Assembly: GCF_008831285.2 (NCBI RefSeq)
Contig: NC_045140.1
Coordinates: forward strand, 23,144,131 to 23,208,130
Length of the DNA: 64,000 bases
Direction: 5' to 3'
From: Nymphaea colorata
Taxonomy: Eukaryota > Streptophyta > Magnoliopsida > Nymphaeales > Nymphaeaceae
Shown: positions 18,772 through 62,625 of the stretch, in pieces
Numbering within the stretch: the first letter of the stretch is position 1
Layout: each line of letters opens with the position of its first letter
Notes under the pieces: model-generated
Told to the model about the DNA's origin: nothing
What the model saw: only the letters and a program-made list of their open reading frames with translations
Database searches by the model: none
Position numbers and translations under genes: made by a program

Positions 18772-19128
18772 TTAATTATGAATAGGAGAATTTTTTGCTG
18801 CAGCTGAATAGTCCATAGATGTGAAGTCAACGACCTCCGAGTAACCCTTTTCTTTCTCCTTTTCTGCAGTCGACAACGTCTTCACCACCTTCTCTGCAGT
18901 GATACGACCACCATTTTTGATGTGGTCCGGGGTTAATCTTATACCTGTCAGCAAAACAAAAGGTTTAATTTAGTCATTCGTTTCACCAAAGGAAACCAAC
19001 GAGCTGCCCAACATGTATAGGATTCAATGCCGAAAATTGCTTAACAGCCGCACACCTTGAGTTGTTGTGGCACTTAACAGCAAAACAGCGACTAGGAGAA
19101 CTTGAAACTTGAATTGTACAACCGCCAT
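18772..19128 (-). CDS. RGF/GOLVEN/CLEL-type peptide hormone precursor 1 (subfamily A)
   Basis: Two exons, 19056-19128 and 18772-18944, with a 111-bp intron (donor GTGTGC, acceptor GACAG), joined in phase 1 to give 81 aa. Exon 1 encodes a signal peptide (MAVVQFKFQVLLVAVLLLSA, then TTTQG). Exon 2 starts IRLTPDHIKNGG, has a basic KVVKTLS segment and an acidic/Lys stretch, then FTSM and the C-terminal peptide DYSAAAKNSPIHN. The last 13 residues fit the RGF/GLV/CLEL consensus: DY for TPST tyrosine sulfation, Pro at 10 (hydroxylation site in RGF1), and terminal HN. Family members are secreted, released by subtilases and perceived by RGFR/RGI receptor kinases, controlling root meristem size and gravitropism. 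Length (about 80 aa) is normal to short for the family. Secretion and receptor are inferred from family membership. Confidence 0.9.
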
Positions 19129-19256
19129 TGGAGAAGACAATTAGAAGAAAGAAATGAGCAGCAGAAACGTGAAAAGAGAAAGCAGCAGAGGAAGGCAGGA
19201 AGCAGAGGAGAGGAAGATGATGGGATTTGTGCATTTTCTTTCACTATACATCTTAC

Positions 19257-19296
19257 CTATATATAGTAGCTACGAGAAGAAAGCAACTGTACCACC
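19257..19296 (-). promoter_or_regulatory. Core promoter of RGF-like gene 1
   Basis: TATA box CTATATATAG at 19257-19266, about 130 bp before the ATG. Just upstream, at 19282-19296, is the box GGTGGTACAGTTGCT (coding strand). It contains CAGTTG, a MYB-type core, and recurs in the same place in sister genes. Confidence 0.75.
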
Positions 19297-19510
19297 ACGC
19301 AACCAAATGAAAGCATGGTTCGAGGTGGCCCTCGGTTCCAAACCCAGGAAAAGCGAATGAAAAAAAACAGAAGAAATTGGATTTGATTTCAATATTTTGA
19401 CCTTCAGTTGTGATTCTATCTAAAATTGCGTGTAAAGAGAACTGTAAATTTCAGATTGAAAGCAGAAGCAGGTTCCTGCAGAAACCAGAGTTATCTAGAA
19501 TTGAGTGAAT

Positions 19511-19666
19511 GGTCTCACTGGTCTGAAGATTTGAGGACATGCATATGTTGTTATCGTTTTCTTTCTCCGGATAAATGGGACACGAAATCGTGGATTCATG
19601 TGCTCCCTCAAGATTTTCAGAGACATATGCATGCACATGCTGCCCTTCATGCTTCTTCCTGAAATG
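19511..19666 (-). promoter_or_regulatory. Conserved upstream block of RGF-like gene 1
   Basis: Plus-strand text runs tctcactggtctga, then gggacacgaaatcgtgg, attcatgtgctc, and cagagacatatgcatgcac. The same ordered pieces occur upstream of nine sister genes. It contains CATGCATG-like and CACATG sites. Confidence 0.75.
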
Positions 19667-20019
19667 TTCATATTAAGCAAATGAAGAAAGATATTTCATC
19701 CATCTCTATAATCCACCAAAAGGCTCACCTAACACCCATGCTTTTCTTTGGTTAGTACATATGAGGCAAGGTGGAGACATGGACCCTACTTGGGGTTTAC
19801 CTTCCAAAACTTGGGTCCATTAATTGATTCAATCCTTGCGAGGTGTCATACTTACGAAATAGCAAAAAGAGAGACGAAAGAAATAAAAGAAATTAAGAAG
19901 AAGAAAGGAAGGAGTAGGGACTTGGGATACCTCTGGTTTTCAATCTTGTCTGAATAAGTGGGTGCAGGCAACAGACACTCAGATGGAAGGAAGAAGTTGG
20001 GGGATCACATACATGACCC

Positions 20020-20160
20020 TCTTCTTGGACCTTGTGAGGCAGAGTCTGACCCAGTTCCAGAATTGTCTTAGATGGGTCTGGTCATCCCTGGTCCACCGTT
20101 TGGGTCCTTGCAAAGACATGTCCACAGATCCAACAATCTTCTCCATGTAAAATTTCATGG
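20020..20160 (-). repeat. Distal duplicated block, gene 1 unit
   Basis: Plus-strand pieces ttggaccttgtgaggcagag, tctgacccagttccagaatt and ccctggtccacc match blocks upstream of genes 2, 6, 7 and 9, showing that about 1 kb of upstream DNA was duplicated with the gene. Confidence 0.65.
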
Positions 20161-21400
20161 GACATTCTAACTTTGATTTCACTGTGCCTGACCCCAAGTA
20201 AACATGTAATATAATCCAAGGGGCAAATAAAAGTCCTAGTGATAATAGGCCCGTTTGCTGTCATCTATTCTTTATGATGTTCACTGAACTTGAATTGCTA
20301 GAGAAGTTGGTCCCTATCCCCCGATCTAGACACCAACCCAGCTATTTCTTAATCACCAAATCTCAATGAATGGGTTTCTGGATCTGGTCCCCTGACAGCA
20401 TCTGCCCAATTTAAATCCCTGAAAGCAGCAGTTTCACCTAGCAGTATATCTCCTACTTGATTTGAATCGATGCTTACTTAAATGGTCTGGGCAATGATAT
20501 TTCTACTTGGCTAATGGGCATAAGAACGGGATCGGTAAAGGCATCAGGATATCTGTAGATATCGCAGAGAATGTTGTCCTTGAAGATTGTCCATTTGTTG
20601 GAAGCACCATTGGGTGAAATGCCATTATTTTGCGAAAACAATGGTTGGTAACAGTACCCTTACATCGTTTTAAGCTGCAATATTCTCATCAAGAAGACTC
20701 GAAATCAACTCTTCGATTGCTATCTGAGAAGGAACCATGGTCAACCATAAGGATCTAAGAAGCAAATCCCATGTAAGCCCCACGCACCAATCACTTACTG
20801 GACAATGCACCATCATTTTGAGACCAATTCATTTTACTGGTAGCTTTATAGTTTGTTTTATTTTGGCGGTGAGCAAATTGTATATGGTTGAGACATCATA
20901 GTACAATGATGTAAACAAATTAACATCAGACTAAGCGTTAATTTCTTTATTTATCTCTTACTGTTCTTATCCACCTCAAAAAAGCAAAAAAGTGATATGT
21001 TGACAACTTATCCCAAGAGAACGACTTAAACCAAAGGTCCTTGATACCCCATTTGGGCATTGCAAACACTCCCTACATAAAAAGGATGATTAATTGCTCT
21101 GAGTATGTTCGAAGAAAATGTGATCTTTATGCTTCGCATCTTACCAAAGATAAGAGTTAAATGTTTCACCAGTTTCTTTTTCTCATGGGGACAAAATGAA
21201 TACTGAAAAGACATGCAATTCCAGTCCTTATCTCGCAAAACTTTGCCTACTGCAAAGATGAAAAAACAAGATGTTAACTAGAATAGCCAAAAAACTTGGT
21301 AGAGAGGTAAACTGATGGAAATCTGTTCTGACTTCTTTTAATATAACCATTTAAAACCTGTCCCCTCCAAGAGACCTAAGGCCTCTAGCAAAGTAGGAAC

Positions 21401-21665
21401 ATGCACATGAATGTGGGGCTTCATGCCCACGCAGAGTTTGCGCAATAAATAGTGGTGAAAGTTGCAGTTCATGGCATCAGGGTACCTCTGATCTCATAGG
21501 CCATGTAGGTCAGTACCATTAATTGCAGCGCACCAGTTTGAGAAGCCATCGTAGGGGCGTGGCACTAGTGCTGCAAAGCAAAACAGAGCAATGTGATGTG
21601 TTTGCACATAGTATTGACATCAAGCTTTGCAACTTCCCAGTTCCCACCCCCCATCTCTGCTTCAT
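21401..21665 (-). repeat. Far-distal duplicated block, gene 1 unit
   Basis: Begins gcacatgaatgtggggc and later has caatgtgatgtgtt. The same series in the same order lies at 26486-26700 in the gene 2 unit. The gcacatgaatgtgggg core also recurs near 33618, 37936, 48391 and 53068. Confidence 0.7.
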
Positions 21666-24519
21666 GTCAACTTGTGATAGTGATTGTACCAATATCATGA
21701 ATATCGGATTCCCTCTCGTATTGGTATTTGCCCATTTATGCAACAATTCTATACTAGAATTTGCTTCTCACAGGAGGTGTTGGTAGGAGAGATTCACTTG
21801 TTACAGACGTTGAAAGGGAGACTTCAGCTTATTTCTCTTCCACCAAAGATCGCCGATTGATGTGGAAAATTCGGCTTTTTACAACATGGCGTATTTATGG
21901 CAGCAAGGAATGATGCCATTTGTAAAGGGCTCAACATTGACATCATAATCATATTTATGCAGGTGCTTTGTGATGTATTTCCTTCGTGAATTTGCATCGT
22001 CCTTCGGGACAGACATTGCCACTATGACTTGTAAATTGTAATTGTTGTTTATAGGTGGCTATTAATCTTATTAGAGTGATCTTTCTCCCTGTCAAGCCCA
22101 AAAACATAAACAAGGAAATCTAATAGTTGCAAACTGAAACTTGAAAGGCTGAGGTGTTGAACACCAAGAAGCAGTTTGTAAGGATGCAAACAGGTTAGAT
22201 CCCGTACTATTAAATATATTATAGTTCAGATAAAGAATCCAATATTCAAGTATAGCCGAACTGATGGAAACCAGACAGCAAAATTCGACCTCCAAAAACT
22301 GTTTGTATTGGAGTATTTGCCGTTTTGTTCCTGGGTGAGACACCGAACATATGATTGAGTGAATTACACAAGCTGGGAGAGGAGGTGACTTAAAGGCGAT
22401 CCATTAGGGCTCGAGTTCGACCTGCAAATTATTTAATAATTTCATCGCAATTACGTCTGACTCGCTACCACCTTTTTTTCTTCCATTGTGTGTGTTAAGT
22501 TTTGACTGCAGATTTAGTAAAACTCGAGTTATTTTTGAAAGCAAAGACATGGATTTGTTGTCAATTTCTCTATCCTTATTTGGACTTAAAAATTCTCTGG
22601 CCTCTCACGGCAAACTTCTCAATGCATTGAATCCGGCAGCATGTTCAATCAATACATCGGGTGGTGGTGATTGGAGGGAGCTGAAGATGGCTGGAGGATT
22701 CTAGCTCATCGTTAAACACAAACTGCAATTTGTTGCCACTTTCATCTGGGCATTAAAGGGTGACATATATGCTGCTTAATTACTCAAAAAACGTCGCTTT
22801 GTTTCCAATCCAACTTAACGTCTCCCCTGTTCTCCCCGCTTCATTTAATATGACAATATGAAAGGGGAGAGGAAAGGAGATAGAGAAATATGAGAATTCG
22901 AGAGTTAGTTCAAATTGGTTAAGACAGTGTTTCATGAATTTGTCTGAAAAAATGAAGTAGATTCATGGAAAATTGTATTTCTTTGCCTGAATCACTGGGC
23001 AAACACCCCTGCTGTCCGTTGTGTAAATGGCTCGAGTTAGATGGAAGAGATTTCAGACTCAAAATCGGGGGTGTACAAATGACATCCCTCAAGTTCAACA
23101 CCATAACCCGTTTGTTCTAATGATCGCAGTGGGCTCTAGAAGAAGCGGATAAACAGGAGCAATGGGGTTCATGTCAATCTGAAGTGAGGTGCAGATCCAA
23201 GTTAATTAATCTTGGGAGAGGCACACAGGCTTCTGGAAGATGACGACCAGCTTATACAAGACACAGAAGTGGGCGTCCGCCGGCGTCACCATCGGAGCTG
23301 CCGTCGATCGTGCAGACGGCGGGGGCCCCCTGCGTAATGGGCTGCCGCTGATGTCACCATCGTTGGGCACTTTTGTTGTGGAGGATCTGAAATAAGGGAC
23401 GGTCATCGGCGATGGCCATTAATTTCCCAGTATCCCGTTGTCTTCTCCGCGAAACAGTGAGCGAAACGTATGTGAACCCCATAAAAGGAAAAATTAAAGG
23501 AATAGAATTGCCAAAATACGTTCGACCAAAAAATGTATCGATTGCTAGACGGTTTGACAAATTTAGGCAGTTACTCTGGTTCCCTTTGTACAGTGCCGTG
23601 CTTCCCCCTAAGTTGCAAACCAATCCACTTCTCTTTATTATTTTTTAAAATATTATATTATTCTATATGTTTCGATTATGTTCCTGATCATGATTCATAA
23701 TGAGCTACATCATTTCCCATAATGGAGTGAGGCCTGCCAATTTGGCAAATGAGATTCAGGCGCAGTCTGAAACTTAAAACTTTAAAAAAGCGCTGTTCTT
23801 CAAAAAAAAATTGTTAAAAATGAAAAACTAAAAAAACGTGTTTTTTTAATGTCAAACTATTTTTTTCACTTTTTAACTTTTATTTGTTGCAAATCTACTC
23901 ACTTTTTTACGTTTGTATTATTAGTTTCTCATTTATTATATTATTTTTTATTTTTAAATTTTAAAAAAATTATTGTACTTTTCTCTGTTTTTTTATTAAG
24001 ATTGCCGCACTATACCAAAAGGTTTTTTTATGACTAGGAAGTCTCAAACATTCATGAAGCACTCCAATGTGCCCCCACTCTATCATGAACAACAAAATTC
24101 ACTGCACATCAAAACTCATATTTTTGCATGGTTCATGTATGTCCATTTGTCATGGTGCATCTAAAGACTGCTTGATGATAGACAAAGTTTCTTACTATTT
24201 TATAAATCTGTAAATGTTAGTAAAACAATATAACACAATGTTTGATGAATTTGCTCTAATCTTTTAGAATAGATTACTAACCTCTGAGCTCCAAATGTCT
24301 TAACAAAATGTCCAAATTGAATGGATTGATGCATCAATTGTAGTGAAAATGAATTAAGGAGATCGATTTTTATTTCAAAACCAAGGAGGACGTTTGTACA
24401 TATTGATCGAGCTCTTCTGTCCAAATTTACGGGAACAACATGCCCCAATGAACTCATGAAGACAAAGAATGGGATGTGTAAGGCTCCAGGTTAAAGTGGG
24501 CTGAAACTAATTAATCTCT

Positions 24520-24687: not shown

Positions 24688-25046
24688 TTAGTTATGAATT
24701 GGAGAATTGTTTGCTGCAGCTGAATAGTCCATAGATGTGAAGTGAACGAGTTCCAAGTTACCCTTTTCCCTTTCCTCTTCTACTGGAGACAACTTCTTCA
24801 CCACCTTCTTCCCACTCCCACGTCCGCCATCCTCCACTTCCTTCGGGGTCAATCTTATACCTACAAGAAACCACAAAGTTTTAGTAATTTGCTTCATTGA
24901 AGGAAACCGAACCTCCTAAGTTTCAACACATAAGATCAAACACTCAACAAAACTATAACTACTCCTTGCTCGCCTTGAATTGTTGTCGTGCTTATTAACA
25001 AAACTATGACCAGGAGAACTTGAAACTTGAATTGTACACTCGCCAT
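24688..25046 (-). CDS. RGF/GOLVEN/CLEL-type peptide precursor 2 (subfamily A, GC-AG intron)
   Basis: Exons 24974-25046 and 24688-24860, 81 aa, the same exon lengths as gene 1. Signal peptide MASVQFKFQVLLVIVLLIST with TTIQG at its end; exon 2 starts IRLTPKEVEDGG, carries KKVVKKLSPVEEE and ends FTSM plus DYSAAANNSPIHN. The 113-bp intron begins GCGAGC where nine sister genes have GTGAxx (gene 1 has GTGTGC). This is a GC-AG intron if spliced at the conserved place. If it is not spliced, translation stops soon after QGEQGVVIVLLSV and no peptide is made. Position 7 is Asn where most sisters have Lys. Confidence 0.87.
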
Positions 25047-25351: not shown

Positions 25352-25516
25352 GATCTCACTGGTCCGACGATTCGATGAGATTCTTTTGTTGTTGATCGGT
25401 TTTCATTTCCTTCCCCATGTTCAGGAGACACAAACTCGTGGATTCATGTGATGGCCGGCCCTCATCTGCAAAGGGACATGCATATACGCTTTGCTTAATT
25501 TCCATACTTCTTCCTA
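25352..25516 (-). promoter_or_regulatory. Conserved upstream block of RGF-like gene 2
   Basis: Plus-strand pieces tctcactggtccga, ggagacacaaactcgtgg, attcatgtg, gggacatgcatatac. About 310-470 bp before the ATG. Confidence 0.7.
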
Positions 25517-28948: not shown

Positions 28949-28949
<1 letters not shown>

Positions 28950-29034: not shown

Positions 29035-29035
<1 letters not shown>

Positions 29036-29156: not shown

Positions 29157-29510
29157 CTAGTTGTGAATAGGAGGTTTCTTGGCCACAGGTGAATAATCCA
29201 TTTCTGTGAAATGAGCCATCCCAGAACCATGTGGAGCTGTTTCCGTTGGCTTCATACCCTTCTCGTCTTCCCAATCTCCACCGGCATCTCTCCCAAATTT
29301 GTTCAATGGTACCCTTAGCCCTACAACAAGAAAAGTAGAATCCTTTAAATTCTTTCTTGCCACTAAAAGAAACTGGCTGAACACTTTCAGCTGTGAGATA
29401 TGCAACACTGAAGAATTAATCAATTTATGCTCACCTTCAACCGACGTTGCTCCGCTGATAAGTAGAACCGTGAGTATGATAGCTTCTAAGCTTAATTGCA
29501 ACTCGGCCAT
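29157..29510 (-). CDS. RGF/GOLVEN/CLEL-type peptide precursor 3 (subfamily B, stop-free intron)
   Basis: Exons 29435-29510 and 29157-29320 give 79 aa. Signal peptide MAELQLSLEAIILTVLLIS, ending VEG; exon 2 starts LRVPLNKFGRDAGGDWEDEKG and ends MAHFTEM plus DYSPVAKKPPIHN. The 114-bp intron (donor GTGAGC, acceptor TTGTAG) is a multiple of three and has no stop, so the unspliced frame is also open (117 aa from this ATG). Splicing is preferred because every sister has an intron at exactly this place. An in-frame ATG ten codons upstream (29540) was not chosen because the sisters start at MA. TATA-like ctatttatagg lies near 29603. Confidence 0.87.
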   Translation of the reverse strand: MAELQLSLEAIILTVLLISGATSVEGEHKLINSSVLHISQLKVFSQFLLVARKNLKDSTFLVVGLRVPLNKFGRDAGGDWEDEKGMKPTETAPHGSGMAHFTEMDYSPVAKKPPIHN

Positions 29511-29849: not shown

Positions 29850-29963
29850 GCAGTTGGCTGACAGTTTGAACCATTAATGGGGCAGTTTCTGGTCTCTTTC
29901 CCTACATTAAATGAGGCACGTACAAGGTTGTGGTCTCTTGTGCTCATATGCTTGCACATGGTG
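29850..29963 (-). promoter_or_regulatory. Conserved upstream block of RGF-like gene 3 (divergent)
   Basis: Plus-strand pieces ggcagttggctgacagttt, aaatgaggcacgtacaagg and cttgtgctcatatgcttgc keep the order of the block in sister genes but with more substitutions. Confidence 0.55.
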
Positions 29964-31878: not shown

Positions 31879-32260
31879 TCAGTTATGGATGGGAGTGCTT
31901 TTCGCAGCAGCCGAGTAGTCCATAGAATTGAAGTCAGCCAATTCCGAGTAACCCTTCTCTTTTTCCTTTTCTCTGATCGGTGGACTCGGCAACTCCTTCG
32001 CCACCTTCTTCAGACTCCGGCGTCCAGCACCATTCCCGAACTCATTCGGGGTTAATCTTATTCCTACAACAAACCAAACAGTTTTAGTAAACCAGGTCAT
32101 GAGTTTGCACTTCTTGGGAACAAGGAAAGAATTCGATAGTTTCAGTATGTATATGGTTGAAGAACACCCGCTGCGCTATCTCACCTTGAATTGTTCTCGC
32201 ACTCATGATCAGCAAAAGCGCGACTAGCAACACTTGAAACTTGAACTGTGCACTCGCCAT
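31879..32260 (-). CDS. RGF/GOLVEN/CLEL-type peptide precursor 4 (subfamily A)
   Basis: Exons 32185-32260 and 31879-32063 with a 121-bp intron (donor GTGAGA, acceptor TTGTAG) give 86 aa, the longest of the array. Signal peptide MASAQFKFQVLLVALLLIMS, then ARTIQG; exon 2 starts IRLTPNEFGNG and has a longer basic segment GRRSLKKVAKELPSPPIREKE before FNSM and DYSAAAKSTPIHN. The RRSL and KKVAKEL strings are the most likely processing sites, by analogy with the basic subtilase sites in known GLV precursors (inference). TATA box near 32403-32414. Confidence 0.9.
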
Positions 32261-32653: not shown

Positions 32654-32811
32654 CTGGTCTGATGCTTTCGAGACATTTGTTTGTTGGTTGTGCATGTTGG
32701 TTTCCCTCCTGCAAGTAAATGAGAAACAAAGATCGTGCAGTCATGTGCCGACTCTGGTGTTTCGAGGGACACATACATGTAACATGATGGTTCCCGTGCT
32801 TCTTCCAGAAA
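32654..32811 (-). promoter_or_regulatory. Conserved upstream block of RGF-like gene 4
   Basis: Plus-strand pieces ctggtctgatg, cgagacatttgtttgttgg, aaatgagaaacaaagatcgt and gagggacacatacatg in the shared order. Confidence 0.7.
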
Positions 32812-36138: not shown

Positions 36139-36482
36139 CTAGTTGTGAATGGGAGCTTTGTTGGATGCAGCAGAGTAGTCCATGTCGGTGAAATCAGCCA
36201 TGACTGAGTCGTCAGGAGCTGAAGCACCTTCCTCCTTCATACCCTTCTTTCCTTTCATGTATCCATGACCAGCCTTATTGCCGTCCTCCACGGGAAGCAC
36301 CCTTATCCCTGCAACAAACCAAAAAAGAGTAGTGAGTACAAACTAACTATGTGTAGACCTTGAGCAGTTTCGGCCTCGAATTTGACAACTGAAAGAAGCG
36401 TTTGTTCACCTTGGATCGAAGTAGCAGTTATCAGCAGAAGAGCAAAGAAGAAAACTTCCAATTTTATTTGCAGCTTCGCCAT
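36139..36482 (-). CDS. RGF/GOLVEN/CLEL-type peptide precursor 5 (subfamily B)
   Basis: Exons 36410-36482 and 36139-36308 with a 101-bp intron (donor GTGAAC, acceptor TTGCAG) give 80 aa. Signal peptide MAKLQIKLEVFFFALLLITA, then TSIQG; exon 2 starts IRVLPVEDGNKAGHG, has a basic stretch YMKGKKGMKEEG, then DSVMADFTDM and DYSAASNKAPIHN. The propeptide is of B type (VMADFT) but the peptide is closer to A (SAAS), so it looks intermediate between subfamilies. Confidence 0.9.
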
Positions 36483-37411: not shown

Positions 37412-37535
37412 CTACGGTTTGAGACATTCATCAGGCTCTTTCCGGTCGCCTTCCCACCGCAAACGGGACAGAAGATCGTGGAATCCATGTGCTTCCTCTC
37501 CTTTCCGGGGGACACACGCTGATACTGCTTGGCCA
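37412..37535 (-). promoter_or_regulatory. Conserved upstream block of RGF-like gene 5, displaced
   Basis: ggtttgagacattcat, gggacagaagatcgtgg and aatccatgtgcttcc in order, but about 930-1050 bp before the ATG instead of about 400. AT-rich DNA at 36650-37380 appears to have been inserted between it and the core promoter. Confidence 0.65.
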
Positions 37536-40775: not shown

Positions 40776-41122
40776 TTAGTTATGAATTGGATCATTCTTA
40801 GATGCAGCCGAGTAATCCATAGACGTGAAGCCCATCAGATCCGAGGCACTCTTTTCTTTTTCTTTTTCTTTGTCTATTGCAGATAACTCTCGCACCACGT
40901 CCTCGCCCTTGAGCTCGTTGGGGGTCAATCTTATACCTGCGACAAATGAAATAATTTTGGTCTTTTCAAAGAAGCACTTAAAGTAAGAGTATCATCAGCA
41001 GCACAAGAATCAGCAGAATTGAAGAACAGTTGTACAACTGCTTTCTCACCATGAACTGCTGTTGCACTCAGTATCAGAAGTGCAAGCAGGAAAACTTGAA
41101 GCTTGAAGTGTGTATTCGCCAT
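40776..41122 (-). CDS. RGF/GOLVEN/CLEL-type peptide precursor 6 (subfamily A)
   Basis: Exons 41050-41122 and 40776-40936 with a 113-bp intron (donor GTGAGA, acceptor TCGCAG) give 77 aa. Signal peptide MANTHFKLQVFLLALLILSA, then TAVHG; exon 2 starts IRLTPNELKGEDVV, has VRELSAIDKEKEKEKS and DLMGFTSM, then DYSAASKNDPIHN. VRELS matches the conserved basic site KVVKxLS of sisters and contains an RxL pattern. Position 9 of the peptide is Asp, unlike Ser, Pro, Thr or Ala in the others, which makes it the only acidic variant at that site. Confidence 0.9.
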
Positions 41123-41504: not shown

Positions 41505-41630
41505 TAGTCATTTTGTTGATTATTGGTTCTTTTCTTGAACAAATACAGATGAGACAGGAAATCGTGGGCTCATGTGCTTCCATTCTTTCGCAGAGACACA
41601 TGAATGCCCATGCTGGTCTCCATGCTTCTC
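41505..41630 (-). promoter_or_regulatory. Conserved upstream block of RGF-like gene 6
   Basis: gatgagacaggaaatcgtgg, gctcatgtgcttcc, cagagacacatgaatgccca in the shared order, about 400-510 bp before the ATG. Confidence 0.72.
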
Positions 41631-44218: not shown

Positions 44219-44586
44219 TTAGTTGTGAACGGGAGAATTCTTGGCCGCAGCTGAGTAATCCATAGATGTGAAGTGAACCAGGTCCGAGTCACCATTTTCC
44301 TTTTGGCTTTCTTTTCCCGGCGACTCCTTCACCACCTTCTTCTCTGAACTGCTGCCACCATTCTTCGAATCGTTTGGCGTTAATCTTATACCTAACCTCA
44401 AGATAACCAACAACAATTTCAGTATACTTCGGTTTCAATACGGAAAGAAACGGAACTACTGGAATTCAAACATAAAGGCCGAGACACTGAGAAATATAGA
44501 ACTGCTGGCTCACCTTGGATAGTCGTTGCACTTATGAGCAGAACCGCGACTAGGATAACTTGAAACTTAAATTGCATGGTCGTCAT
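44219..44586 (-). CDS. RGF/GOLVEN/CLEL-type peptide precursor 7 (subfamily A)
   Basis: Exons 44514-44586 and 44219-44391 with a 122-bp intron (donor GTGAGC, acceptor GGTTAG) give 81 aa. Exon 1 reads MTTMQFKFQVILVAVLLISA, then TTIQG. A second Met at residue 4 lines up less well with sisters, so the first is used. Exon 2 starts IRLTPNDSKNGG, carries KKVVKESPGKESQKE and FTSM, then DYSAAAKNSPVHN. This peptide equals that of gene 1 except Val for Ile at position 11, the only Val in the array. Confidence 0.9.
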
Positions 44587-44897: not shown

Positions 44898-45035
44898 GCC
44901 TCAGTGGTCTGACAATTTAAGACATTCATTTGTTGGTGTGGGACAGAAGCTCGTGGATTCATGTGCTCCTGTGCTCCCCATCCATCTGCAGAGACATATG
45001 AATGCACATGCTGGTTTCTAGTCTTCTTTGATGGG
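44898..45035 (-). promoter_or_regulatory. Conserved upstream block of RGF-like gene 7
   Basis: cctcagtggtctgacaattt, gggacagaagctcgtgg, attcatgtgctcc, cagagacatatgaatgcaca; one of the best preserved copies. Confidence 0.75.
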
Positions 45036-47555: not shown

Positions 47556-47878
47556 CTAGTTGTGAATGGGAGGTTTCTTGGCTGCTGGTGCGTAGTCCAT
47601 CTCTGTAAAGTCAGCCATCACGGAGTCATGAGGATCTGAACCAGTTGCCTTCATACTGTTCTGTTCCTTTCTGTATCCACCAGCCTTACTGCCTTCATCC
47701 ATCGCTGCCACCCTTATGCCTACGCTTAAAAGTATGAAACTGAGCTTAATAAAATGTTTTAGCTGTCAAATTTAACTTAAGACCAATGACTTTGCTCACC
47801 GTGAACAGATGGCACGCCAAAGATTAGCACAAGTACTGCAACCAAGAAAACCTTCCTTTTGAGCTGTAAGATCGCCAT
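47556..47878 (-). CDS. RGF/GOLVEN/CLEL-type peptide precursor 8 (subfamily B)
   Basis: Exons 47800-47878 and 47556-47719 with a short 80-bp intron (donor GTGAGC, acceptor GCGTAG) give 80 aa. Signal peptide MAILQLKRKVFLVAVLVLIF, then GVPSVHG; exon 2 starts IRVAAMDEGSKAGGYRKEQ, then DSVMADFTEM and DYAPAAKKPPIHN. Ala replaces Ser at position 3, unique in the array. The long match of its propeptide with gene 5 (EGSKAGGY against DGNKAGHGY, DSVMADFT in both) groups these two. TATA-like tatttatag is at 48001. The block found about 400 bp upstream of the other genes is not recognisable here. Confidence 0.9.
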
Positions 47879-51171: not shown

Positions 51172-51514
51172 TTAGTTGTGGATGGGAGATTTTTTGTTTG
51201 CAGACGAGTAGTCCATGTATGTGAAGTCAGCCATGACGGAGCCATTTTGAGCTAGACCGGTTGCATGCAGAACCTTCTCTTCTTTCCAATGTTCACCAGA
51301 CTCAGTCCTTTCCTCCAACAGAACCCTTATCCCTGCAACACAAAAACACAGAAAGATATGGTTTCACTCCTTTGCTTCATAAAAAGAAGCAGCATTCCTC
51401 AGATGTTTCAGTTGTGAGCTCCCTAGTTAATACTGGGCAATCACCTTGGATTGGTGCTGCGTTACTGATCAACAGAAATGCAAGTAAAAAGATTTCCAAC
51501 TTCAACTTAGCCAT
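51172..51514 (-). CDS. RGF/GOLVEN/CLEL-type peptide precursor 9 (subfamily B)
   Basis: Exons 51445-51514 and 51172-51332 with a 112-bp intron (donor GTGATT, acceptor TTGCAG) give 76 aa, the shortest copy. Signal peptide MAKLKLEIFLLAFLLIS, then NAAPIQG; exon 2 starts IRVLLEERTESGEHWKEEK, then GSVMADFTYM and DYSSANKKSPIHN. The SANKK core resembles the Arabidopsis GLV2/RGF9 peptide as I recall it. The Trp in EHWKEEK is shared with genes 3, 10 and 11. Confidence 0.9.
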
Positions 51515-51830: not shown

Positions 51831-51990
51831 ATCTCAGTGGGTAGTGTCAGTTGCCTGACGGTTTGGGACATGTATGGGTAGTTACTTGTCCCCTTCCCTA
51901 AGTAAAATGAGACACAAGATCATGGATTCATGTGCTCATTCTTGTCTTTAAGAGGACATACAAGTTTGCCTTGCTGCTACTTCCTCAGCA
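51831..51990 (-). promoter_or_regulatory. Conserved upstream block of RGF-like gene 9
   Basis: atctcagtggg, ctgacggtttgggacatgta, aaatgagacacaagatcatg and gattcatgtgctc in the shared order. Confidence 0.75.
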
Positions 51991-55091: not shown

Positions 55092-55405
55092 TTAGTTGTG
55101 AATGGGAGATTTCTTTGCTTCAGGTGAATAGTCCATGTCTGTGAGGTAAGGTAACTCTGAGTGTGAAAGGCGATTTTCTCGAGCTGCTTTCCGACAGTTC
55201 ATTTGCTTCCAACACAGGTCGGCCTTAACTTCATGCACGGGTACCCTTATCCCTACAGTAAACAAAAATGTTTTACTTTTCGCACCATGAAACGAAGTGA
55301 ATTTCAGTACTGAATAACAGTTGCTTGCTCACCTTGGATTGATGTTGCATACATCAGCAGAAGTGCAAGTAAGAAAATGTCCATCTTCAACTTCCTGTCT
55401 GCCAT
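55092..55405 (-). CDS. RGF/GOLVEN/CLEL-type peptide precursor 10 (subfamily B, divergent propeptide)
   Basis: Exons 55333-55405 and 55092-55252 with an 80-bp intron (donor GTGAGC, acceptor CTGTAG) give 77 aa. Signal peptide MADRKLKMDIFLLALLLMYA, then TSIQG; exon 2 starts IRVPVHEVKADLCWKQMNCR, then KAARENRLSHSELPYLTDM and DYSPEAKKSPIHN. It lacks the MADFT segment of other B members, has two Cys (CWKQMNC), and carries a basic ARENRLS run that could be a subtilase site. Position 5 is Glu, the only acidic residue there in the array. Confidence 0.88.
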
Positions 55406-55711: not shown

Positions 55712-55868
55712 ATGGTTTCGGTCGTTTTTAGTTCGAGACATTTACGTGGCAGTTATTGGTTTCCTTTCACCGTAAAATGAGACACAAGGTCATGGAACCA
55801 TGTGCTTCTTTTTGCTTTCAGAGACACATTTGCCTGCACATGCTGGTACTACCAGAGAAATGGGGGCC
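55712..55868 (-). promoter_or_regulatory. Conserved upstream block of RGF-like gene 10
   Basis: gttcgagacatttacgtggc, aaatgagacacaaggtcatg, aaccatgtgcttc, cagagacacat, gcacatgctggtactacc. It is nearly the mirror match of the block of gene 11, placing these two as close relatives. Confidence 0.78.
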
Positions 55869-57561
55869 ATGCTTGTGTAAATGTAAGCTATCAATAATAA
55901 CATCGTTGCATTATGATTCTAGTAGAAATTTGGTTACGAGCCAACTTCTACAGCCAACATGAACCCCTGTCAAACAACCAAGGGTTTCTGCGAAACATAA
56001 TAAAATGTTTGAAAGATGATTGACAATTATACATTTAGCTTTGGATTACCTAGGAAAGCAGAGAAAAAAGAAAAAAGAATGTTCGAGTACGCTGTAAGAT
56101 TAAACTTCTATCAGTTTTCCAGTATAAGGGAGTGTGCCTGAAAAGCTCTTGTTGAGAAGAGGTCAAGAGCCTAAGCAAGAACATTCAAATGGGCCTCGAC
56201 ACAAAAATCATGCTTTGGTTGTGACCTTGGTCTAACCTTTCTCTTATATTTAGTCATGCGGTTCCCTTGACGAAGACTAAAAACCACCTTAGCCTCAGTC
56301 CAATCACACCTCAACCCGAGTCCGCAGAAATTGCAGATAATTAAGGCAAGTATGTCCTAGACATATACCCAACAAGGATCAACATGTGAAAGTACTGAAA
56401 TTATGCGACTACACCACATGGTTCGCCAGATCTGGTCCTTGCCAAGGTCAGATTCACGGTGCATACAATACAAAGCCAAGAGGAGGCCTATTTACGCCCC
56501 CTGGTCCTAGTGCAGTGATACTCCCAAGTGTTTCAATTTGTTCGAACACCAACCTGCACCACAATTTCCTTGAAAGTGGTTAGAAGCTTTTTATAAAGAA
56601 TAAAACAAATTATACAATATATGCCCAATTGGCATAGGTACACGCACTCTGCTTGGTCCCTTCACTAGGGCTTTCGACACAACTTTTTTGAGGATATGAT
56701 ATACAGCAAATACATGCCCAATTGGCGTAGATACTACTCACTCTGCTTGGTCCCTTTTCTAGGGCTCTTGACACAACTTTCTTGGTAATATGATATACAG
56801 AAAATATACGACCAATTGGCATAGAAACTACTCTCTCTGCTTGGTCCATTCACTACGGCTTTCGACACAACTTTCTTGAGGATAATATACAGAAAATTGT
56901 GGTAATCTCTTGAAGTAGTTTTGAGTGCTCTGGCGAAGGCCTTACATTGTCCAGATGGAACATGGACCATGTGAATAAAGAAGGTTATATATGTACATGT
57001 TCTCTAATAAGGAGAAACAGCGGACATTTCATGCAAAGTATATTACATTTTTGTGCCACAATTAGTGAGCCATTTGTGATGACATGGAAGCGAATCTGAT
57101 AAATGAAGCAAACGACACGTAAAGTAGGTCAAAAGTTCCTCTCCATCCTTAGCCACATAAGCATAGACCTGATGGTAGACCTTCTATGGGTGTCCGTGTG
57201 TGCTTTGTAATAAGGAGAAACTGCACATACTCTTGTGAGATCAGCCTTGGATTTTAAAAAAGCGTGTGCTGATAGATAACACGCAGAGATGTGCTTCTGT
57301 GCATATCTAGTTGCCAGATTTGAAATTGAGTATTAGTTGAAGATTTCATTGGAACTTACAGGTGATGATCATATATAAATACCTAGATCGTATTCTTCTA
57401 GCAACTCCTCCATATTTGGGAGATACTTTGGCTAATTTAAATAAAGAACAAACCTCTTCCAATTATTTGCTTTCACATGCCTGATGATCCAACTCATAGA
57501 GATGTTTAATGCTGAAACAATTTTCATAAGCTGCTACCAAACTTAAATGGACACTGGTACC
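55869..57561. other. Intergenic, no gene seen
   Basis: Holds the 94-bp triple repeat described separately; otherwise no recognisable content. Confidence 0.55.
56621..56897. repeat. Tandem repeat, three copies of a 93-94 bp unit
   Basis: Units begin at about 56621 (atgcccaattgg), 56714 and 56808. Each contains ctctgcttggtcc, ggct.t.gacacaactt and a tatacag motif. Divergence between copies is moderate, and the period close to 31 codons keeps a frame open on the minus strand. Confidence 0.92.
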
Positions 57562-59448
57562 TCACCAGTAATCGTTACAAGAACAAGTGCCTTCTCTGAA
57601 CAAATGGAATCGACTGCGGTCCCGCACTATGATATCACGCTTTACAATTTTTGAGATCAACTTTGTAGCAACATGGCAGTCATTACAGACACGAAGATTC
57701 TTAACAATTCGAATAGGAGTGCCTTCACTGGTACTAATGAGCGCAAAAGCAATTGCCAACTTCTCACTATGTGTGGAAAGAGCGTTTCTTTTTCTTCTTC
57801 GTCTATGCTATGTGTCACTAAATCTGTGTTGGGAGTATAACCAGCAAGTTTCAGCTTCACACGTAACTCGGCAACCATAGAGTATATCTTCTCAGACTCA
57901 GGATGGGACTTGTCCCCCATTAAGAATTCATAGACAGTATTATCTATTTCAATCCAACTGCATCCTGGGGTTTTCACTACTCTTTTCTCCTTCATCATCA
58001 ACCTACATCTAGCAGCATCATCGAGTCTACCCACAGAAGCATACACATTTGCAAGGTAAACATAGCTACCTGAGTGTTCCGAGTCCAACTCAAGTATTTT
58101 CTGCACAACCCACTGTCCCCGATGGATATCCTTATGAATGCGGCAGCCCCCTAAAACTGCACCCCATATGATAACATTTGGTGCTATTGGCATAGAATCG
58201 ATCAAGTCTACAGCCTCATCTAGACGCCCTGCTCTGCTTAGAAGATCAACTACGCAACCATAATGTTCTATCTTGGGCGTAATCTGGTACTCCCTGCTCA
58301 TAAGGTTAAAGAAGTGCATTCCTTCATCAACCAATCCAGCATGGGTGCATGCGACAGTACGCCCATGAAAGTTATGTCATTGGGCCTCATGCCACACCTG
58401 CTCATTTCCCAGAAATACTTGAAAGCTTCATCAGCATGACCGTGCATTGCCAGCCCAGCAATTATAATGCTCCATGAGATTACATCTCTCTCTACCATCT
58501 CACTGAACACTCTGCATGAACTTTAATGCATCCACATTTGGCATACATGTCTGCAAGTGCATTACCAAGAAACAAGCTCAGTTGCATTCGAACTTTGTTG
58601 ATGTAGCGATCAATCCACTTCCCCAAGTCCAGAGCTCCAAGATGAGCACACGCTGATAAAACACTTACAAAAGTAACTTCATCAGGCTTCACTCTCTCCA
58701 CCTGCATTTGGCGAAACAGCGCAATGGCATCCACAAACTTCTCATTTTGGCATACCCTGCAATGATCGTATTCCAAGCAACAACATTCCTCTCCGGCATG
58801 TCATCAAAGAACCTCCGTGCAGTCACAGTATCACCTACCCTAGTGTAACCAGCAATCATGGCCGACCAAGAGACCATATTCTTCTCCGGCATCCGATCGA
58901 ACATTTCCCTCGCCCTATCGACATCCCCACACAGCGAAAACCCAGCAACCGTGGTATTCCAAGAAACGACATCCCTACCGTCATTTCATCGAACAATTGC
59001 CCTGCGGTCTTCGGATCACCAAACTTGAAGTACATGTCGACCAGAGAATTGCGAACAAAAAGATTAGACTTGAACCCTTTCTTGAGAACGAACCCATGAA
59101 CTCTTTGCCCTCCACGACTGCGACGAGCCCCGCGCACGCCTTGAGAACGGAAGTGAAGGTGTACTCATCGGCTTCGGCCGCACCCAGCTCGTTAAAGTAG
59201 CGGACCACATCTCCCCAGCAATGATTCTGTGCGCAGGACTTGAGGATGGTGTTCCAGGCGAAGATGTTAGGAGCAGGAAGACCACCGAAGACGAAGGCGG
59301 CGTGCGGGAGCCTGGAGAAAGCGGCATAGAGGCCGATAAGCTTGACGGCGATAAAGTTGGTGGTGGTGGGGTTGGAGAGTGTGTGGTTTGTGAGGAGATG
59401 GGCGTGAAGCTGCTGGAGATGGACTAAGGAGGAGCACCGAAGGAGCAT
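57562..59448 (-). pseudogene. DYW-type PPR protein gene with six frameshifts (pseudogene or assembly errors)
   Basis: Reading the minus strand across frames gives one coherent PLS-class PPR protein of about 625 aa. It runs from MLLRCSSLVHLQQLHAHLL through repeats such as NSLVDMYFKFGDPKTAGQLF and ALADMYAKCGCIK, the E region (PGCSWIEIDNTVYEFLMGDK), and a DYW deaminase end with CNDCH and GTCSCNDYW. Frames change near 59100, 58978, 58749, 58523, 58350 and 57770. Each is repaired by adding one base, for instance CACAT for CACCAT inside the HSE zinc/catalytic motif near 57770. No in-frame stop from a substitution is seen. Six 1-nt losses without other decay could be recent pseudogenisation or uncorrected long-read deletions. 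A functional copy would do C-to-U RNA editing in organelles. Start taken at 59448. Confidence 0.85.
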
Positions 59449-59560
59449 GGAGATGACCCATTGCTTCTTGCCCGTGATGGTGGCATTGTGCGGAGAGTGT
59501 GCCAGAGTTCAAATTTTCAAAATTTTGGTGGGATTCTTGGCTTGGTGCCGCTTGCCACAA

Positions 59561-62085
59561 TCAATGGCTGCCCCTGGAGGAGTCGTCCGGGCTCGGAGGA
59601 AATTTCGACGCTAGACAAACTTACTGAACAAGCAGCTTCAGGCCGTCACGTTTGTAACATAAAAAGTTCCTCAAAAGGAAGAACAGAGTAAAAGAACGAG
59701 CAATTCCGCACCTTGTCGTCAAGCGTTCAAACCAGGGATATAAATGCTTCAAATCAGTCAAGCCAGAGGCCCAACTCAACCAAAAAATCTGTTTAATCGA
59801 AGCATGTGACAAATAAAATCAATGATCAGATTAAGATTTTGGTCTCCACTCTCAGCTTCTGATCGTGCTCACCATAGTCGACCACAGTCGGCATTTTGAA
59901 AAGCAAAGCAGCGGAAGCCTTCCTAAATGGAAATGTCGATACTTTCAAAACATTGTCATCATGTATTTCTCTTTTTCATGAAAACTACTCTTTGTATTAT
60001 TTTTCATTTTTTCATTATTTTTAAAATTGAAAACCATTCTTAATTTCATATCTTTATTATTTCATACATTTTTTAGCTTTTCTAAATAAACTCCCATGAT
60101 TTCCCAGAAAAAACTCAAAAAATCTTGCCGATAAACATCCAATGCCATATTTAAGCGCGCACACACACACACAATCTGCGTCGGTTCTTATCATACTTGA
60201 AAAACCATAACTACAAAGCGCCAAATTGCCAATGTTTGTGCTACAATCTTTACCCATGAAACAGAACGATCATGCATCATTCACAGTGGCATGATTGAAA
60301 TTGCTCTTCTACAAATGCCTTGTAGTTCCGTGGCGCTACAAATATTTGCCTTTAACAAAACTGTTATATATATATATATCAAAGCAACTATTGATAATGC
60401 CATCTAAGAAAGTGCCCTGCTCCTCTACTGAATGCACCAACCTTCTATCAGCATCAAGCGATTCAAGCACTTTCTTCATTAACATATCCATGGAACCTAG
60501 AGATCCGTGTCATTGAAAAGCCTTATTTAAAATGTTTGTGGCATAGATGCTAATTGCCCAGTTAGTTTGGTGTAAATCAGCAATGAAATATGTAGAACTT
60601 GCATGTATGCAGATTTTATCAACCTTCAAAGATTCAATAAACATGAAAATGCAACACTTCTATGATGCGGGGGCCATATTGTTCATCAGAAATATTGGTG
60701 CTTATATGGGTCGATTCTTATCAAACCAACAGTGTTGGTGCACCCACATCTGCATAATTGAAATTTGTTTAAGACATAGAATACAGAGATTCTGAGGCAC
60801 ACCTGTTTCATACGATTATGTTCAAAAGATATGTAAACTCAGCTTCCTCTTTCTTCAGAATATCCACAGTTCATATCATTTAAGCTTTCATGGAGGGACC
60901 AACCATGTACATCAGTTGAATACAGATTGCATTGACTCGATACTTGCACTTTCGTCAAGTCGTTTGTGAAATGCTTTTAAGTCCCCTTGAAGAGAATGCA
61001 GATTACAAACGAACTCAACCGCACTGAACTCTAGTTAAATAAAGCTTGAAACTTTTTGCTTTTTTGACAAGATAAAGGAGAAAATGGATCTCTGAATGCA
61101 CATTTCCATGTTTCTGGATTGTAAAAAACTCAGTTCCTCCTTACTAACTTTGAATATGCTTGGATTTAACAGCGCAGCAAGAGATGTTTACCATGGCTCA
61201 AACTTTGTGACGTCCGAAATCTTGGTCACTTCCATGGACCTGGTTATGAAAGTAAAGTGCTGAATTGGCCCTTCAGCATCTCTCTAGTAATCTGATTTTA
61301 GTAAAAGCAGATGTGATGAACCGTAAGGTGCAATCTCATAATTTCAGCACTTTCTAGTAATGAGATCTCTCTCTCTCTTTCTCTCATTTCCTGCACCAGT
61401 TGGGGTTATAAAAGGCTTCGCTCTCGACCAGCAGTGCATGTAAGAGCAAAAAAAATGTTCACGGATAACCATGAAATCATTCTTTCAGTTATTCATAAAT
61501 TTTATCAGAAAGTTATGCAAACCATATAAAATCACCAACAAAACAAACTAACAATGATCATACAACCTTATGGTCTCCTCTTTTTTCAAAAGGATCCAGT
61601 GTTATTTAGGAAGCTTCTGGCAGAATGTGTAAGATGTCCATGTGAAGATTCTTCATGGATTAAGACTGCAACACGTCACTTTTGGATGCGCCCATTGTCA
61701 GTACCCTATGAACAAATTTGAAGCAAGCATGGTCCTCGTTACTCTGGTAGTACCAGCATGTGCAACCATGTATAAATTTATATGCCTCTGAAAACAAGAA
61801 AATGCACATGATTCCACGGCCTTGTGTCTCATATTTTACGGGGGGCAAGAAACCAACAACTGCCACATACATGTCTGACACGCATTCATTGATCAGATTT
61901 TACATTAAATCTTTACCATCGTCGGATTTGAATGAGATCATTTATCGCAACCTTCAGCTTGGCTCTCTCTTTTTTTTCTTTTGAGAAAATCCGAGCAAGC
62001 GACGATGATGATGATTAGCATCCATATACTTTTCCTGCAGTGGACTTCATTGAAAACCATGTATGCACGTTCTTATGCGGCTATT
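59561..62085. other. Intergenic, upstream of RGF-like gene 11
   Basis: No coding gene seen. Includes the conserved upstream block at 61735-61875. A TATA-like ttataaaagg at about 61408 is followed by no recognisable gene. Confidence 0.5.
61735..61875 (+). promoter_or_regulatory. Conserved upstream block of RGF-like gene 11
   Basis: In inverted orientation relative to the other ten, matching the plus-strand gene. Its complement reads acatgtatgtggcagttgtt, gagacacaaggccgtgg, aatcatgtgca, ttttcagaggc, gcacatgctggtactac. It ends about 400 bp before the ATG. Confidence 0.78.
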
Positions 62086-62145
62086 CGGTGGTAAAGTTGC
62101 TTTCGGTTCTTGTATGCAATTTGTAAGCATATATATTATATATGT
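62086..62145 (+). promoter_or_regulatory. Core promoter of RGF-like gene 11
   Basis: GGTGGTAAAGTTGCT at about 62087-62101 (one change from the array box, C to A) and an AT-rich TATA element atatatattatatat at about 62130-62144. Confidence 0.7.
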
Positions 62146-62274
62146 AGTACGTGGTACAGAAGAAAATCGAATGCATTATCAGAAACTTTTCTTCTCCTTA
62201 ATTCCTCTTCGTTCTTCTTAGGCCATCTTCTTCATCTATTTCTTCTTCCTTGCTAGCTCTTACCTTTCTTCTCA

Positions 62275-62625
62275 ATGGCGAAGTTGCAATTCAAGTTGGA
62301 ATTCATCCTACTCGTGCTTCTGTTGATCATTCATGCATCAATATCTGTCCAAGGTGAGCAGAGAATAACCCTTGATCAGTTCCGAAATTTTTTAAACCTG
62401 AATCCATTATTATTTCGGTACCACGATTGCAAAAGGGTAAAACCACCTGTTTGTGCTTATGAAGGGATAAGGGTACCACTGGATAAAGACATTAGTGCTG
62501 TTGGCCATTGGAGAGAAAGGAAGGTCACGAAGGCAACCGATGCCGCTCCACATGACTTGGAGATGGCCGACTTCATGGGCATGGACTATTCACCTGCAGC
62601 CAAGAAACCTCCCATTCACAACTAA
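62275..62625 (+). CDS. RGF/GOLVEN/CLEL-type peptide precursor 11 (subfamily B, plus strand, stop-free intron)
   Basis: Exons 62275-62353 and 62465-62625 give 79 aa. Signal peptide MAKLQFKLEFILLVLLLIIH, then ASISVQG; exon 2 starts IRVPLDKDISAVGHWRERK and ends EMADFMGM plus DYSPAAKKPPIHN. The 111-bp intron (donor GTGAGC, acceptor ATGAAG with a weak pyrimidine tract) is a multiple of three and stop-free, so the unspliced frame is a continuous 116-aa ORF ending in the same peptide. The spliced model is preferred by comparison with sisters. It is the only copy on this strand and is separated from gene 10 by the broken PPR gene. Confidence 0.88.
   Translation: MAKLQFKLEFILLVLLLIIHASISVQGEQRITLDQFRNFLNLNPLLFRYHDCKRVKPPVCAYEGIRVPLDKDISAVGHWRERKVTKATDAAPHDLEMADFMGMDYSPAAKKPPIHN

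What the first reader, a model, noticed from the sequence alone, without database searches (positions are those of the whole stretch)
18772..62625. Array of eleven RGF/GOLVEN/CLEL-type peptide hormone genes in 44 kb
Eleven two-exon genes each encode a signal peptide, a short variable propeptide and a C-terminal 13-mer with invariant D1, Y2, P10, H12 and N13, always preceded by Met. Ten are on the minus strand at 2.7-5.9 kb spacing; one is on the plus strand. RGF/GLV/CLEL genes are known in all seed plants, but I know of no description of an array this large. It would amount to a locally expanded peptide-signalling system. Family assignment rests on the consensus D-Y-x(7)-P-x-H-N.
Basis: partly seen in the sequence, partly recalled or inferred. 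Interest (0 to 1): 0.9.

Follow-up and report, generated by a model that had tools for sequence, protein, structure and literature searches.

The report
Old eleven-gene plant peptide-hormone array
A water lily chromosome carries eleven side-by-side genes that each appear to make a slightly different version of a known plant peptide hormone, apparently kept intact over a long time and mostly sharing a control element, which offers a natural test of why a plant would keep so many near-copies of one signal.

Summary
Eleven two-exon genes encode a hydrophobic N-terminus, a variable propeptide and a C-terminal M-D-Y-x7-P-x-H-N-stop. Ten precursors exceed Pfam's GLV1-2 cut-off (PF21529); G4 falls just below. 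All eleven 13-mers differ; Arabidopsis RGF9/GLV2/CLEL9 is best or joint-best match for each. The genome is very probably Nymphaea colorata (two published SSR primers match exactly and once, on the expected chromosomes). All twelve PF21529 hits on this chromosome (E up to 10) lie inside the window.

The array is old, not a recent burst: pairwise dS is about 0.5 to 2, spacers barely align, all eleven frames are open, and the 13-mer is strongly constrained (dN/dS 0.12, propeptide 0.56). Two sequence types interleave.

New here: a conserved upstream module, clear in seven genes (held-out test), borderline or alignment-only in three, not found in one; eight copies contain TGTC(T/C)C. A genome search finds it only at the array, though it recovers only three of the array's own copies. 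RGI-like receptors number five or six, none on this chromosome.

Most likely this is a co-regulated bank of secreted, sulfated GLV2-type ligands read by a few shared receptors. Expression, processing and activity are untested.

The parts
18772..19128 (-). G1: exon 1 19056-19128, exon 2 18772-18944; 13-mer DYSAAAKNSPIHN; type A
   Evidence: PF21529 36.9 bits
24688..25046 (-). G2: exon 1 24974-25046, exon 2 24688-24860; GC-AG intron; DYSAAANNSPIHN; type A
   Evidence: PF21529 28.7 bits
29157..29510 (-). G3: exon 1 29435-29510, exon 2 29157-29320; intron open in frame; DYSPVAKKPPIHN; type B
   Evidence: PF21529 33.1 bits
31879..32260 (-). G4: exon 1 32185-32260, exon 2 31879-32063; DYSAAAKSTPIHN; type A
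   Evidence: PF21529 26.2 bits, below cut-off 28.1
36139..36482 (-). G5: exon 1 36410-36482, exon 2 36139-36308; DYSAASNKAPIHN; type B
   Evidence: PF21529 32.6 bits
40776..41122 (-). G6: exon 1 41050-41122, exon 2 40776-40936; DYSAASKNDPIHN; type A
   Evidence: PF21529 39.5 bits
44219..44586 (-). G7: exon 1 44514-44586, exon 2 44219-44391; DYSAAAKNSPVHN; type A
   Evidence: PF21529 33.1 bits
47556..47878 (-). G8: exon 1 47800-47878, exon 2 47556-47719; DYAPAAKKPPIHN; type B; no upstream module found
   Evidence: PF21529 43.0 bits; module search
51172..51514 (-). G9: exon 1 51445-51514, exon 2 51172-51332; DYSSANKKSPIHN, 11 of 13 identical to Arabidopsis RGF9/GLV2; type B
   Evidence: PF21529 37.5 bits
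55092..55405 (-). G10: exon 1 55333-55405, exon 2 55092-55252; DYSPEAKKSPIHN; type B
   Evidence: PF21529 33.3 bits
62275..62625 (+). G11: exon 1 62275-62353, exon 2 62465-62625; intron open in frame; DYSPAAKKPPIHN; type B; the only plus-strand copy
   Evidence: PF21529 41.8 bits
19574..19607 (-). Upstream module of G1 (34-nt core as scanned)
   Evidence: held-out matrix 43.8 bits, background max 15.4
25422..25455 (-). Upstream module of G2
   Evidence: held-out matrix 33.6 bits, background max 14.7
29914..29947 (-). Upstream module of G3, diverged, with insertion
   Evidence: held-out matrix 15.0 bits, background max 14.0: borderline; alignment
32717..32752 (-). Upstream module of G4, one indel (approximate ends)
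   Evidence: seen in alignment only; in the held-out test the best hit of G4 was elsewhere and no better than background
37462..37495 (-). Upstream module of G5, displaced to about 1 kb before the ATG
   Evidence: held-out matrix 14.5 bits, background max 14.2: borderline; reads as the module with one inserted base
41548..41581 (-). Upstream module of G6
   Evidence: held-out matrix 38.0 bits, background max 14.0
44937..44970 (-). Upstream module of G7
   Evidence: held-out matrix 38.1 bits, background max 14.4
51906..51939 (-). Upstream module of G9
   Evidence: held-out matrix 42.1 bits, background max 15.5
55776..55809 (-). Upstream module of G10
   Evidence: held-out matrix 40.1 bits, background max 15.0
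61800..61833 (+). Upstream module of G11
   Evidence: held-out matrix 32.4 bits, background max 13.7
12639..12680 (-). Twelfth motif MDYIPPTRQSPIHN-stop (coordinates from D to stop), no complete gene model, probably degenerate; not counted as an array gene
   Evidence: PF21529 22.0 bits

Best explanation
This is an old tandem array of eleven intact GLV2/RGF9/CLEL9-type peptide hormone genes (RGF/GLV/CLEL family, group R) in Nymphaea colorata. Each gene makes a 76-86 aa precursor that enters the secretory pathway. TPST would sulfate the Tyr after Asp, P10 would be hydroxylated, and an Asp-dependent subtilase would cut at or just upstream of the Asp-Tyr, releasing a ligand of 13 or slightly more residues that ends in free Asn13. 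The ligands would be read by the five or six RGI-like receptors found here. A related upstream module in most copies and a similar core promoter suggest common, possibly auxin-linked, control. Shown here: gene models, family membership, constraint on the 13-mer, the module, and no sign of receptor expansion. Inferred from Arabidopsis: secretion, sulfation, cleavage, receptor binding, auxin input.
For: All eleven motifs and gene models. PF21529 above cut-off in 10 of 11. RGF9/GLV2 best or joint best of ten Arabidopsis 13-mers for 11 of 11 (joint for G2 and G3; table from PMC11534595, section read). Hydrophobic N-terminus in 11 of 11 (best 12-residue mean 2.48-3.32 against -0.17 to 0.54 in the rest). 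dN/dS over all pairs: M+13-mer 0.12, signal peptide 0.29, propeptide 0.56. None of 10,000 random sets of 14 gap-free columns is as conserved as M+13. In a substitution-only neutral simulation treating the copies as independent, the chance that all eleven frames stay open is at most 3.7e-9 at 0.25 substitutions per site. Held-out detection of the module is clear in 7 of 11 genes (32-44 bits; 0 of 113,643 background sites as good, background maximum 15.5). The 145-bp module region of G10 has three matches in the whole genome at E up to 10, all upstream of array genes. Five receptor hits at 52-63% and a sixth at 47% identity to RGFR1, then 43% or less.
Against: No transcript, proteomic or population data were available. 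No array precursor has the RR[LA]x SBT6.1 site reported for CLEL6 (0 of 11; PMC7162652 passages), so processing may differ; a relaxed R-x-hydrophobic-x match exists in 5 of 11 (G4, G5, G6, G9, G11). G4 falls below the Pfam cut-off. dN/dS uses a counting method on about 50 synonymous sites, with two pairs saturated; within type B the 13-mer (0.20) is no more constrained than the signal peptide (0.21) by this ratio. The module is clear in only 7 genes, borderline in G3 and G5, alignment-only in G4 and not found in G8; the seed k-mers were picked from all the upstreams. The genome search with the G10 module recovers only 3 of the array's own copies, so diverged copies elsewhere are not excluded. 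The auxin link rests on a 6-base motif. Receptors were identified by similarity alone.
Confidence: 0.8

Rival explanations
1. The array encodes secreted DY-peptides of RGF descent that have acquired a different role and are perceived by another LRR receptor kinase, for instance as lineage-specific immune or reproductive signals.
For: Eleven different 13-mers, two sequence types, variable positions 3-9 and 11, and a prodomain without the RR[LA]x site. RGI-like receptors are not expanded, while 150 LRRNT_2 domains were scored (of 452 candidates) in the genome. Arabidopsis GLV2 itself acts in immunity (PMC9066070 abstract).
Against: The residues shared by all eleven are those of the RGF family: D1, Y2, P10, H12, N13. 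The last Asn of RGF1 is contacted by the RXR motif of RGFR1 (PMC6749341 passage). Purifying, not diversifying, signal on the 13-mer.
Confidence: 0.12
2. Only a few of the eleven genes are active; the rest are unexpressed tandem leftovers on the way to loss.
For: No expression evidence here. G8 lacks a detectable upstream module, and those of G3, G4 and G5 are degraded or displaced. G4 is under the Pfam cut-off. A broken motif-bearing stretch lies at 12680.
Against: All eleven frames, starts and splice sites are intact at pairwise dS of about 0.5-2, which is very unlikely without constraint. Over all pairs the M+13 stretch has the lowest dN/dS and the lowest amino-acid difference (0.25, against 0.50 in the signal peptide and 0.62 in the propeptide).
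Confidence: 0.1
3. A recent tandem burst or an assembly artefact.
For: Ten copies in the same orientation.
Against: Exon-2 identity to G1 is 35-68%; between copies only genes and short flanking or promoter blocks align (E up to 1e-8); lowest pairwise dS is 0.46.
Confidence: 0.01
4. Another sulfated or CLE-like peptide family (PSY, CIF, CLE) that resembles RGF by chance.
For: PSY and CIF also start with D-Y (table in PMC11534595).
Against: P10-x-H12-N13-stop and the PF21529 matches; no other Pfam family over its cut-off.
Confidence: 0.02

Closest known systems
Arabidopsis RGF9/GLV2/CLEL9 (AT5G64770, 79 aa precursor; table in PMC11534595)
   Same: Precursor length 76-86 aa against 79; 13-mer 7-11 of 13 identical; M before D-Y; G5 and G10 even keep DMDY, where the mature GLV2 peptide starts: DMD(sY)NSANKKR(Hyp)IHN (PMC9066070 passage). 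The family model PF21529 is named for GLV1 and GLV2.
   Different: One gene in Arabidopsis, eleven distinct paralogues at one locus here, most with a related upstream module.
Tandem RGF duplicates in soybean (eight genes), poplar (four), Medicago and Arabidopsis (PMC8708909, sections read)
   Same: Local duplication of RGF genes.
   Different: Described as pairs or several tandem duplications; the sections that I read describe no single array of this size or age, nor a shared promoter module.
CLEL6/RGF6/GLV1 and its SBT6.1 then SBT3.8 maturation route (PMC7162652 passages)
   Same: Asp directly before the sulfated Tyr, needed for final cleavage, is kept in 11 of 11.
   Different: The dibasic RRLR/RRAL-type SBT6.1 sites are absent in 11 of 11.
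AtLURE1 cluster of species-specific peptide genes (recalled; only its title was seen, in a reference list)
   Same: Local cluster of secreted peptide signals.
   Different: LUREs are cysteine-rich defensin-like peptides, not sulfated short peptides (recalled).

Membership tests
RGF/GLV/CLEL | C-terminal 13-mer starting D-Y with conserved Pro in the second half | tested here: met
   11 of 11
RGF/GLV/CLEL | H12, N13 at the very C terminus | tested here: met
   11 of 11, stop codon follows N13
RGF/GLV/CLEL | N-terminal signal peptide | tested here: met
   Hydrophobic core in 11 of 11 by hydropathy; no dedicated signal-peptide predictor was available
RGF/GLV/CLEL | Variable propeptide, intron-bearing gene | tested here: met
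   Propeptide dN/dS 0.56 against 0.12 in M+13 over all pairs; one phase-1 intron modelled in 11 of 11, no transcripts
Pfam GLV1-2 (PF21529) | Score above the curated cut-off of 28.1 bits | tested here: met
   10 of 11; G4 26.2 bits, E 1.6e-5; G2 just above at 28.7
RGF/GLV/CLEL | Tyrosine sulfation and proline hydroxylation of the mature peptide | not testable with these tools
   D before Y and P10 present in 11 of 11; needs mass spectrometry
RGF/GLV/CLEL | Perception by RGI/RGFR receptor kinases | not testable with these tools
   Five to six RGI-like genes by similarity in this genome; binding not tested
CLEL6-type processing route (not a family-defining feature) | Dibasic SBT6.1 site RR[LA]x in the prodomain | tested here: not met
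   0 of 11; a relaxed R-x-hydrophobic-x match in 5 of 11; the relative on C4 has RRLL in its R-form
CLE peptides | Match to a CLE family model | tested here: not met
   No CLE family match in Pfam up to E 1

The most novel reading that the evidence does not exclude
The array works as a single co-regulated ligand bank: auxin, through the TGTC(T/C)C-bearing module, switches on a set of GLV2-type peptides that differ in the middle residues, so that a handful of shared RGI receptors receive a graded or mixed signal. The bank has been kept since about the time of the water-lily whole-genome duplication, and its precursors have left the usual SBT6.1 route.
Probability: 0.27. Interest if true: 0.75.

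Novelty: new variant of a known kind. Interest (0 to 1): 0.55.

Why it matters
Each gene is an ordinary family member; the arrangement is what is unusual. Several GLV genes can be expressed in one cell type and redundancy is suspected (PMC9066070 passage). Eleven ligands kept intact for so long, against five or six receptor-like genes, argue that the differences or the dosage matter. One locus, mostly with a related control module, makes this testable by deleting the whole array or single copies and by binding assays of eleven natural ligand variants on the same few receptors. It also places a large group-R expansion in a lineage that split off near the base of the flowering plants (PMC7015852 abstract passage).

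Tried and rejected
Twelfth motif at 12680(-): examined. In-frame stop 13 codons before the Met, no convincing exon model, and no high-scoring module site near it in the whole-window scan, so it is not counted.

Hidden group-H type exons inside the array: a looser motif [DE]Y-x6-10-P-x-[HN][HN] within three residues of a stop finds only the same twelve sites.

Module as a dispersed transposable element: not supported. The G10 module region has only three matches genome-wide, all upstream of array genes. That search missed the other array copies, so it rules out close dispersed copies, not diverged ones. The C4 relative shows no module in the stretch held (best matrix score -0.1).

Duplicated neighbourhood elsewhere: the DUF3511 neighbour has four other matches at 49-60% identity, none close to the C4 or C12 GLV loci; uninformative.

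Receptor co-expansion: looked for and not found (14 matches at E up to 1e-60, 98 of 1600 first-look candidates scored). No receptor tree was built.

Tree: the outgroup row joined exons that later showed cannot be joined in frame. Rebuilt: without an outgroup, types A and B are the two sides of one branch (100/100). With the corrected C4 row, which is a very long branch, no branch is starred and the root is unsure, so neither type is claimed as a clade.

Other PF21529 hits: 9 of the 21 listed lie outside the window. I read stretches of L036, L041, L039, L043 and L046; only the first two show an RGF peptide. L040, L042, L044 and L045 were not read. Group-H RGF genes of this genome were not surveyed.


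Full report
What is there. The window lies in a 407.8 Mb, 783-contig genome at C3:23,144,131-23,208,130. Two of the 13 SSR primer pairs published for Nymphaea colorata were tried, forward primers only: Ny-2.2F (chromosome 2) and Ny-3.2F (chromosome 3), from a table passage of PMC9601493. Each matches once and exactly, on C2 and C3. Published size (409 Mb, 804 scaffolds, 14 pseudo-chromosomes; PMC7015852 passage) fits. I take the species to be N. colorata or a very close relative.

Gene models. All eleven claimed genes are present. Exon 1 carries the signal peptide and ends in a phase-1 donor, one intron of 80-122 nt follows, and exon 2 carries propeptide and 13-mer. The G2 donor is GC. The introns of G3 and G11 are open in frame. 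Five genes have a second frame-compatible donor. All eleven 13-mers differ. Positions 3 to 9 and 11 vary; M, D1, Y2, P10, H12 and N13 do not.

Family. Pfam PF21529 (GLV1-2) matches ten of eleven precursors above the cut-off and G4 just below it. Against ten Arabidopsis 13-mers from the table in PMC11534595 (section read; RGF4, GLV8 and GLV9 of other lengths were left out), RGF9/GLV2/CLEL9 is best or joint best for every array peptide; G9 is identical at 11 of 13 positions.

Extent. A whole-genome PF21529 search lists 21 places at E up to 10 (only the best candidates are scored). Twelve are on C3, all inside the window: the eleven genes and the 12680 motif. Of the nine outside I read five, and two show an RGF peptide. 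One on C12 encodes ..VVMDYPQPHRKPPINN, 12 of 13 identical to RGF6/GLV1. One on C4 is described below.

Age and constraint. Pairwise dS (Nei-Gojobori, about 50 synonymous sites) runs from 0.46 to 2.33, with two pairs saturated. The published whole-genome duplication peak in this species is near Ks 0.9 (PMC7015852 passage), by a different method. Many of the duplications are therefore about as old as that event or older, with wide error. Self-BLAST at E up to 1e-8 shows homology between copies only in genes and short flanking or promoter blocks. dN/dS over all pairs is 0.12 in M+13, 0.29 in the signal peptide and 0.56 in the propeptide; within type B, M+13 (0.20) and signal peptide (0.21) are alike. 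A substitution-only neutral simulation makes eleven surviving frames very unlikely. Type B (G3, G5, G8-G11; exon 2 starts IRV or LRV) and type A (G1, G2, G4, G6, G7; IRLTP) are the two sides of one branch with 100/100 support; the root is unsure (mending). The two types interleave along the array.

Shared control region. A core element GGTACAGTTGCTTT lies 135-185 bp before the ATG with two or fewer mismatches in 7 of 11 genes; 0.14% of shuffled upstreams reach that (the motif was picked from the same sequences). A TATA[AT]A box lies between -200 and -60 in 11 of 11, in AT-rich DNA. Farther up lies a module, consensus AGCACATGAnTCCACGATCTTGTGTCTCATTT...GGAAnGAAACCAAnAAC. With each gene held out in turn, a 34-column matrix from the others finds it at 32-44 bits in G1, G2, G6, G7, G9, G10 and G11, where no background site exceeds 15.5 bits. 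G3 (15.0) and G5 (14.5, displaced to -1013) barely exceed the background. G4 is recognisable in the alignment, but its best held-out hit is elsewhere and three background sites score as high. G8 has none that I can find. Of the ten copies, eight contain TGTC(T/C)C. ARFs bind TGTC-containing elements (start of the abstract of PMC5853796 in the listing), and auxin induces GLV1 and GLV2 in Arabidopsis (PMC9066070 passage), so auxin control is a reasonable but untested inference. The G10 region of 145 bp has three matches in the genome at E up to 10, upstream of G9, G10 and G11; the search did not recover the other array copies, so it speaks only against close dispersed copies.

Receptors. The RGFR1 ectodomain (letters from PDB 5hyx) has five matches at 52-63% identity and one at 47%, then 43% or less (14 matches at E up to 1e-60, 98 of 1600 candidates scored). 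The six sit on C1 (two), C11, C12, C13 and C6. They are RGI-like by similarity; no tree was built. Arabidopsis has five RGIs (PMC9066070 passage). The published correlation of RGF and RGI numbers across species (PMC8708909) is not mirrored by this local expansion.

Mechanism. From Arabidopsis work: signal-peptide removal, SBT6.1 pre-processing (CLEL6), TPST sulfation, proline hydroxylation, and Asp-dependent cleavage by SBT3.8 or similar enzymes (PMC7162652 passages). The array keeps the Asp-Tyr pair in all copies but has no RR[LA]x site (0 of 11); a relaxed R-x-hydrophobic-x match is present in 5 of 11. The first step may be missing or use another site. G5 and G10 carry DMDY, where mature GLV2 begins.

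Known and new. Tandem RGF duplicates are known on a small scale (PMC8708909 sections). A review gives nine RGF-like sequences for N. colorata (PMC11756074 passage), citing a study that searched proteomes and transcriptomes by BLAST (PMC8329595, methods section) and whose main text contains no word beginning 'tandem', 'array' or 'Nymphaea'. Its figures and supplements were not available. The listings of five searches of the open-access library showed no paper describing such an array; most subscription papers are outside that library.

A side finding. The C4 relative (L036) has one signal-peptide exon (654-717) that can join in frame to either of two ends: exons 862-914 and 1005-1202, ending DYSGPRRNDPKHH (H-like), or exons 1347-1387 and 1483-1620, ending MDYSSARKSTPNHN (R-type, PF21529 40.1 bits); joining exons 1, 2, 3R and 4R hits a stop. 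The exon ends were chosen by eye, and the acceptor before 1005 is poor in pyrimidines. Conifer CLEL genes with alternative 3' exons encoding separate peptides were reported as not known in other plants (PMC4016512 passages), and a 2021 survey had recognised such pairs only in gymnosperms (PMC8329595 section 14). One further search listed no title or abstract start reporting them in a flowering plant (12 papers). If transcripts confirm it, this is the same architecture in an angiosperm.

Noticed in passing
L036 (G000:C4:13875301-13878417), positions 654-1620: One signal-peptide exon can splice to two alternative ends encoding different RGF-like peptides (DYSGPRRNDPKHH or DYSSARKSTPNHN), an architecture reported for conifers. 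Prediction from splice sites and frames only; no transcripts.
   Followed up: partly
window 12639-12680 (-): A twelfth RGF motif, MDYIPPTRQSPIHN-stop, left of the array, without a clean gene model; a GAA/GGA-rich run lies just before it, where another frame stays open.
   Followed up: partly
window 57657-59508 (-): A PPR gene of E/E+ type lies between G10 and G11, split over three open pieces in the ORF list; possibly a pseudogene, frameshifted or intron-bearing. It sits at the orientation switch of the array.
   Followed up: no
window 124-6865 (-): Left neighbours: a 3-hydroxyisobutyrate-dehydrogenase-like gene (124-1233), a PPR frame (1929-4430) and a DUF3511 frame (6548-6865).
   Followed up: partly
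window 24861-24973 (-): G2 intron has a GC donor (AAG|GCGAGC) while the other ten array introns use GT.
   Followed up: no
L041 (G000:C12, near 16900729): A GLV1/RGF6-like peptide DYPQPHRKPPINN (one such hit listed), with N instead of H at position 12, a feature that a survey notes for lycophyte group R (PMC8329595 section 16).
   Followed up: no
window 56616-56923, 13859-14119, 5697-5861: Short tandem duplications of about 94, 130 and 70 bp in the spacers and left flank.
   Followed up: no
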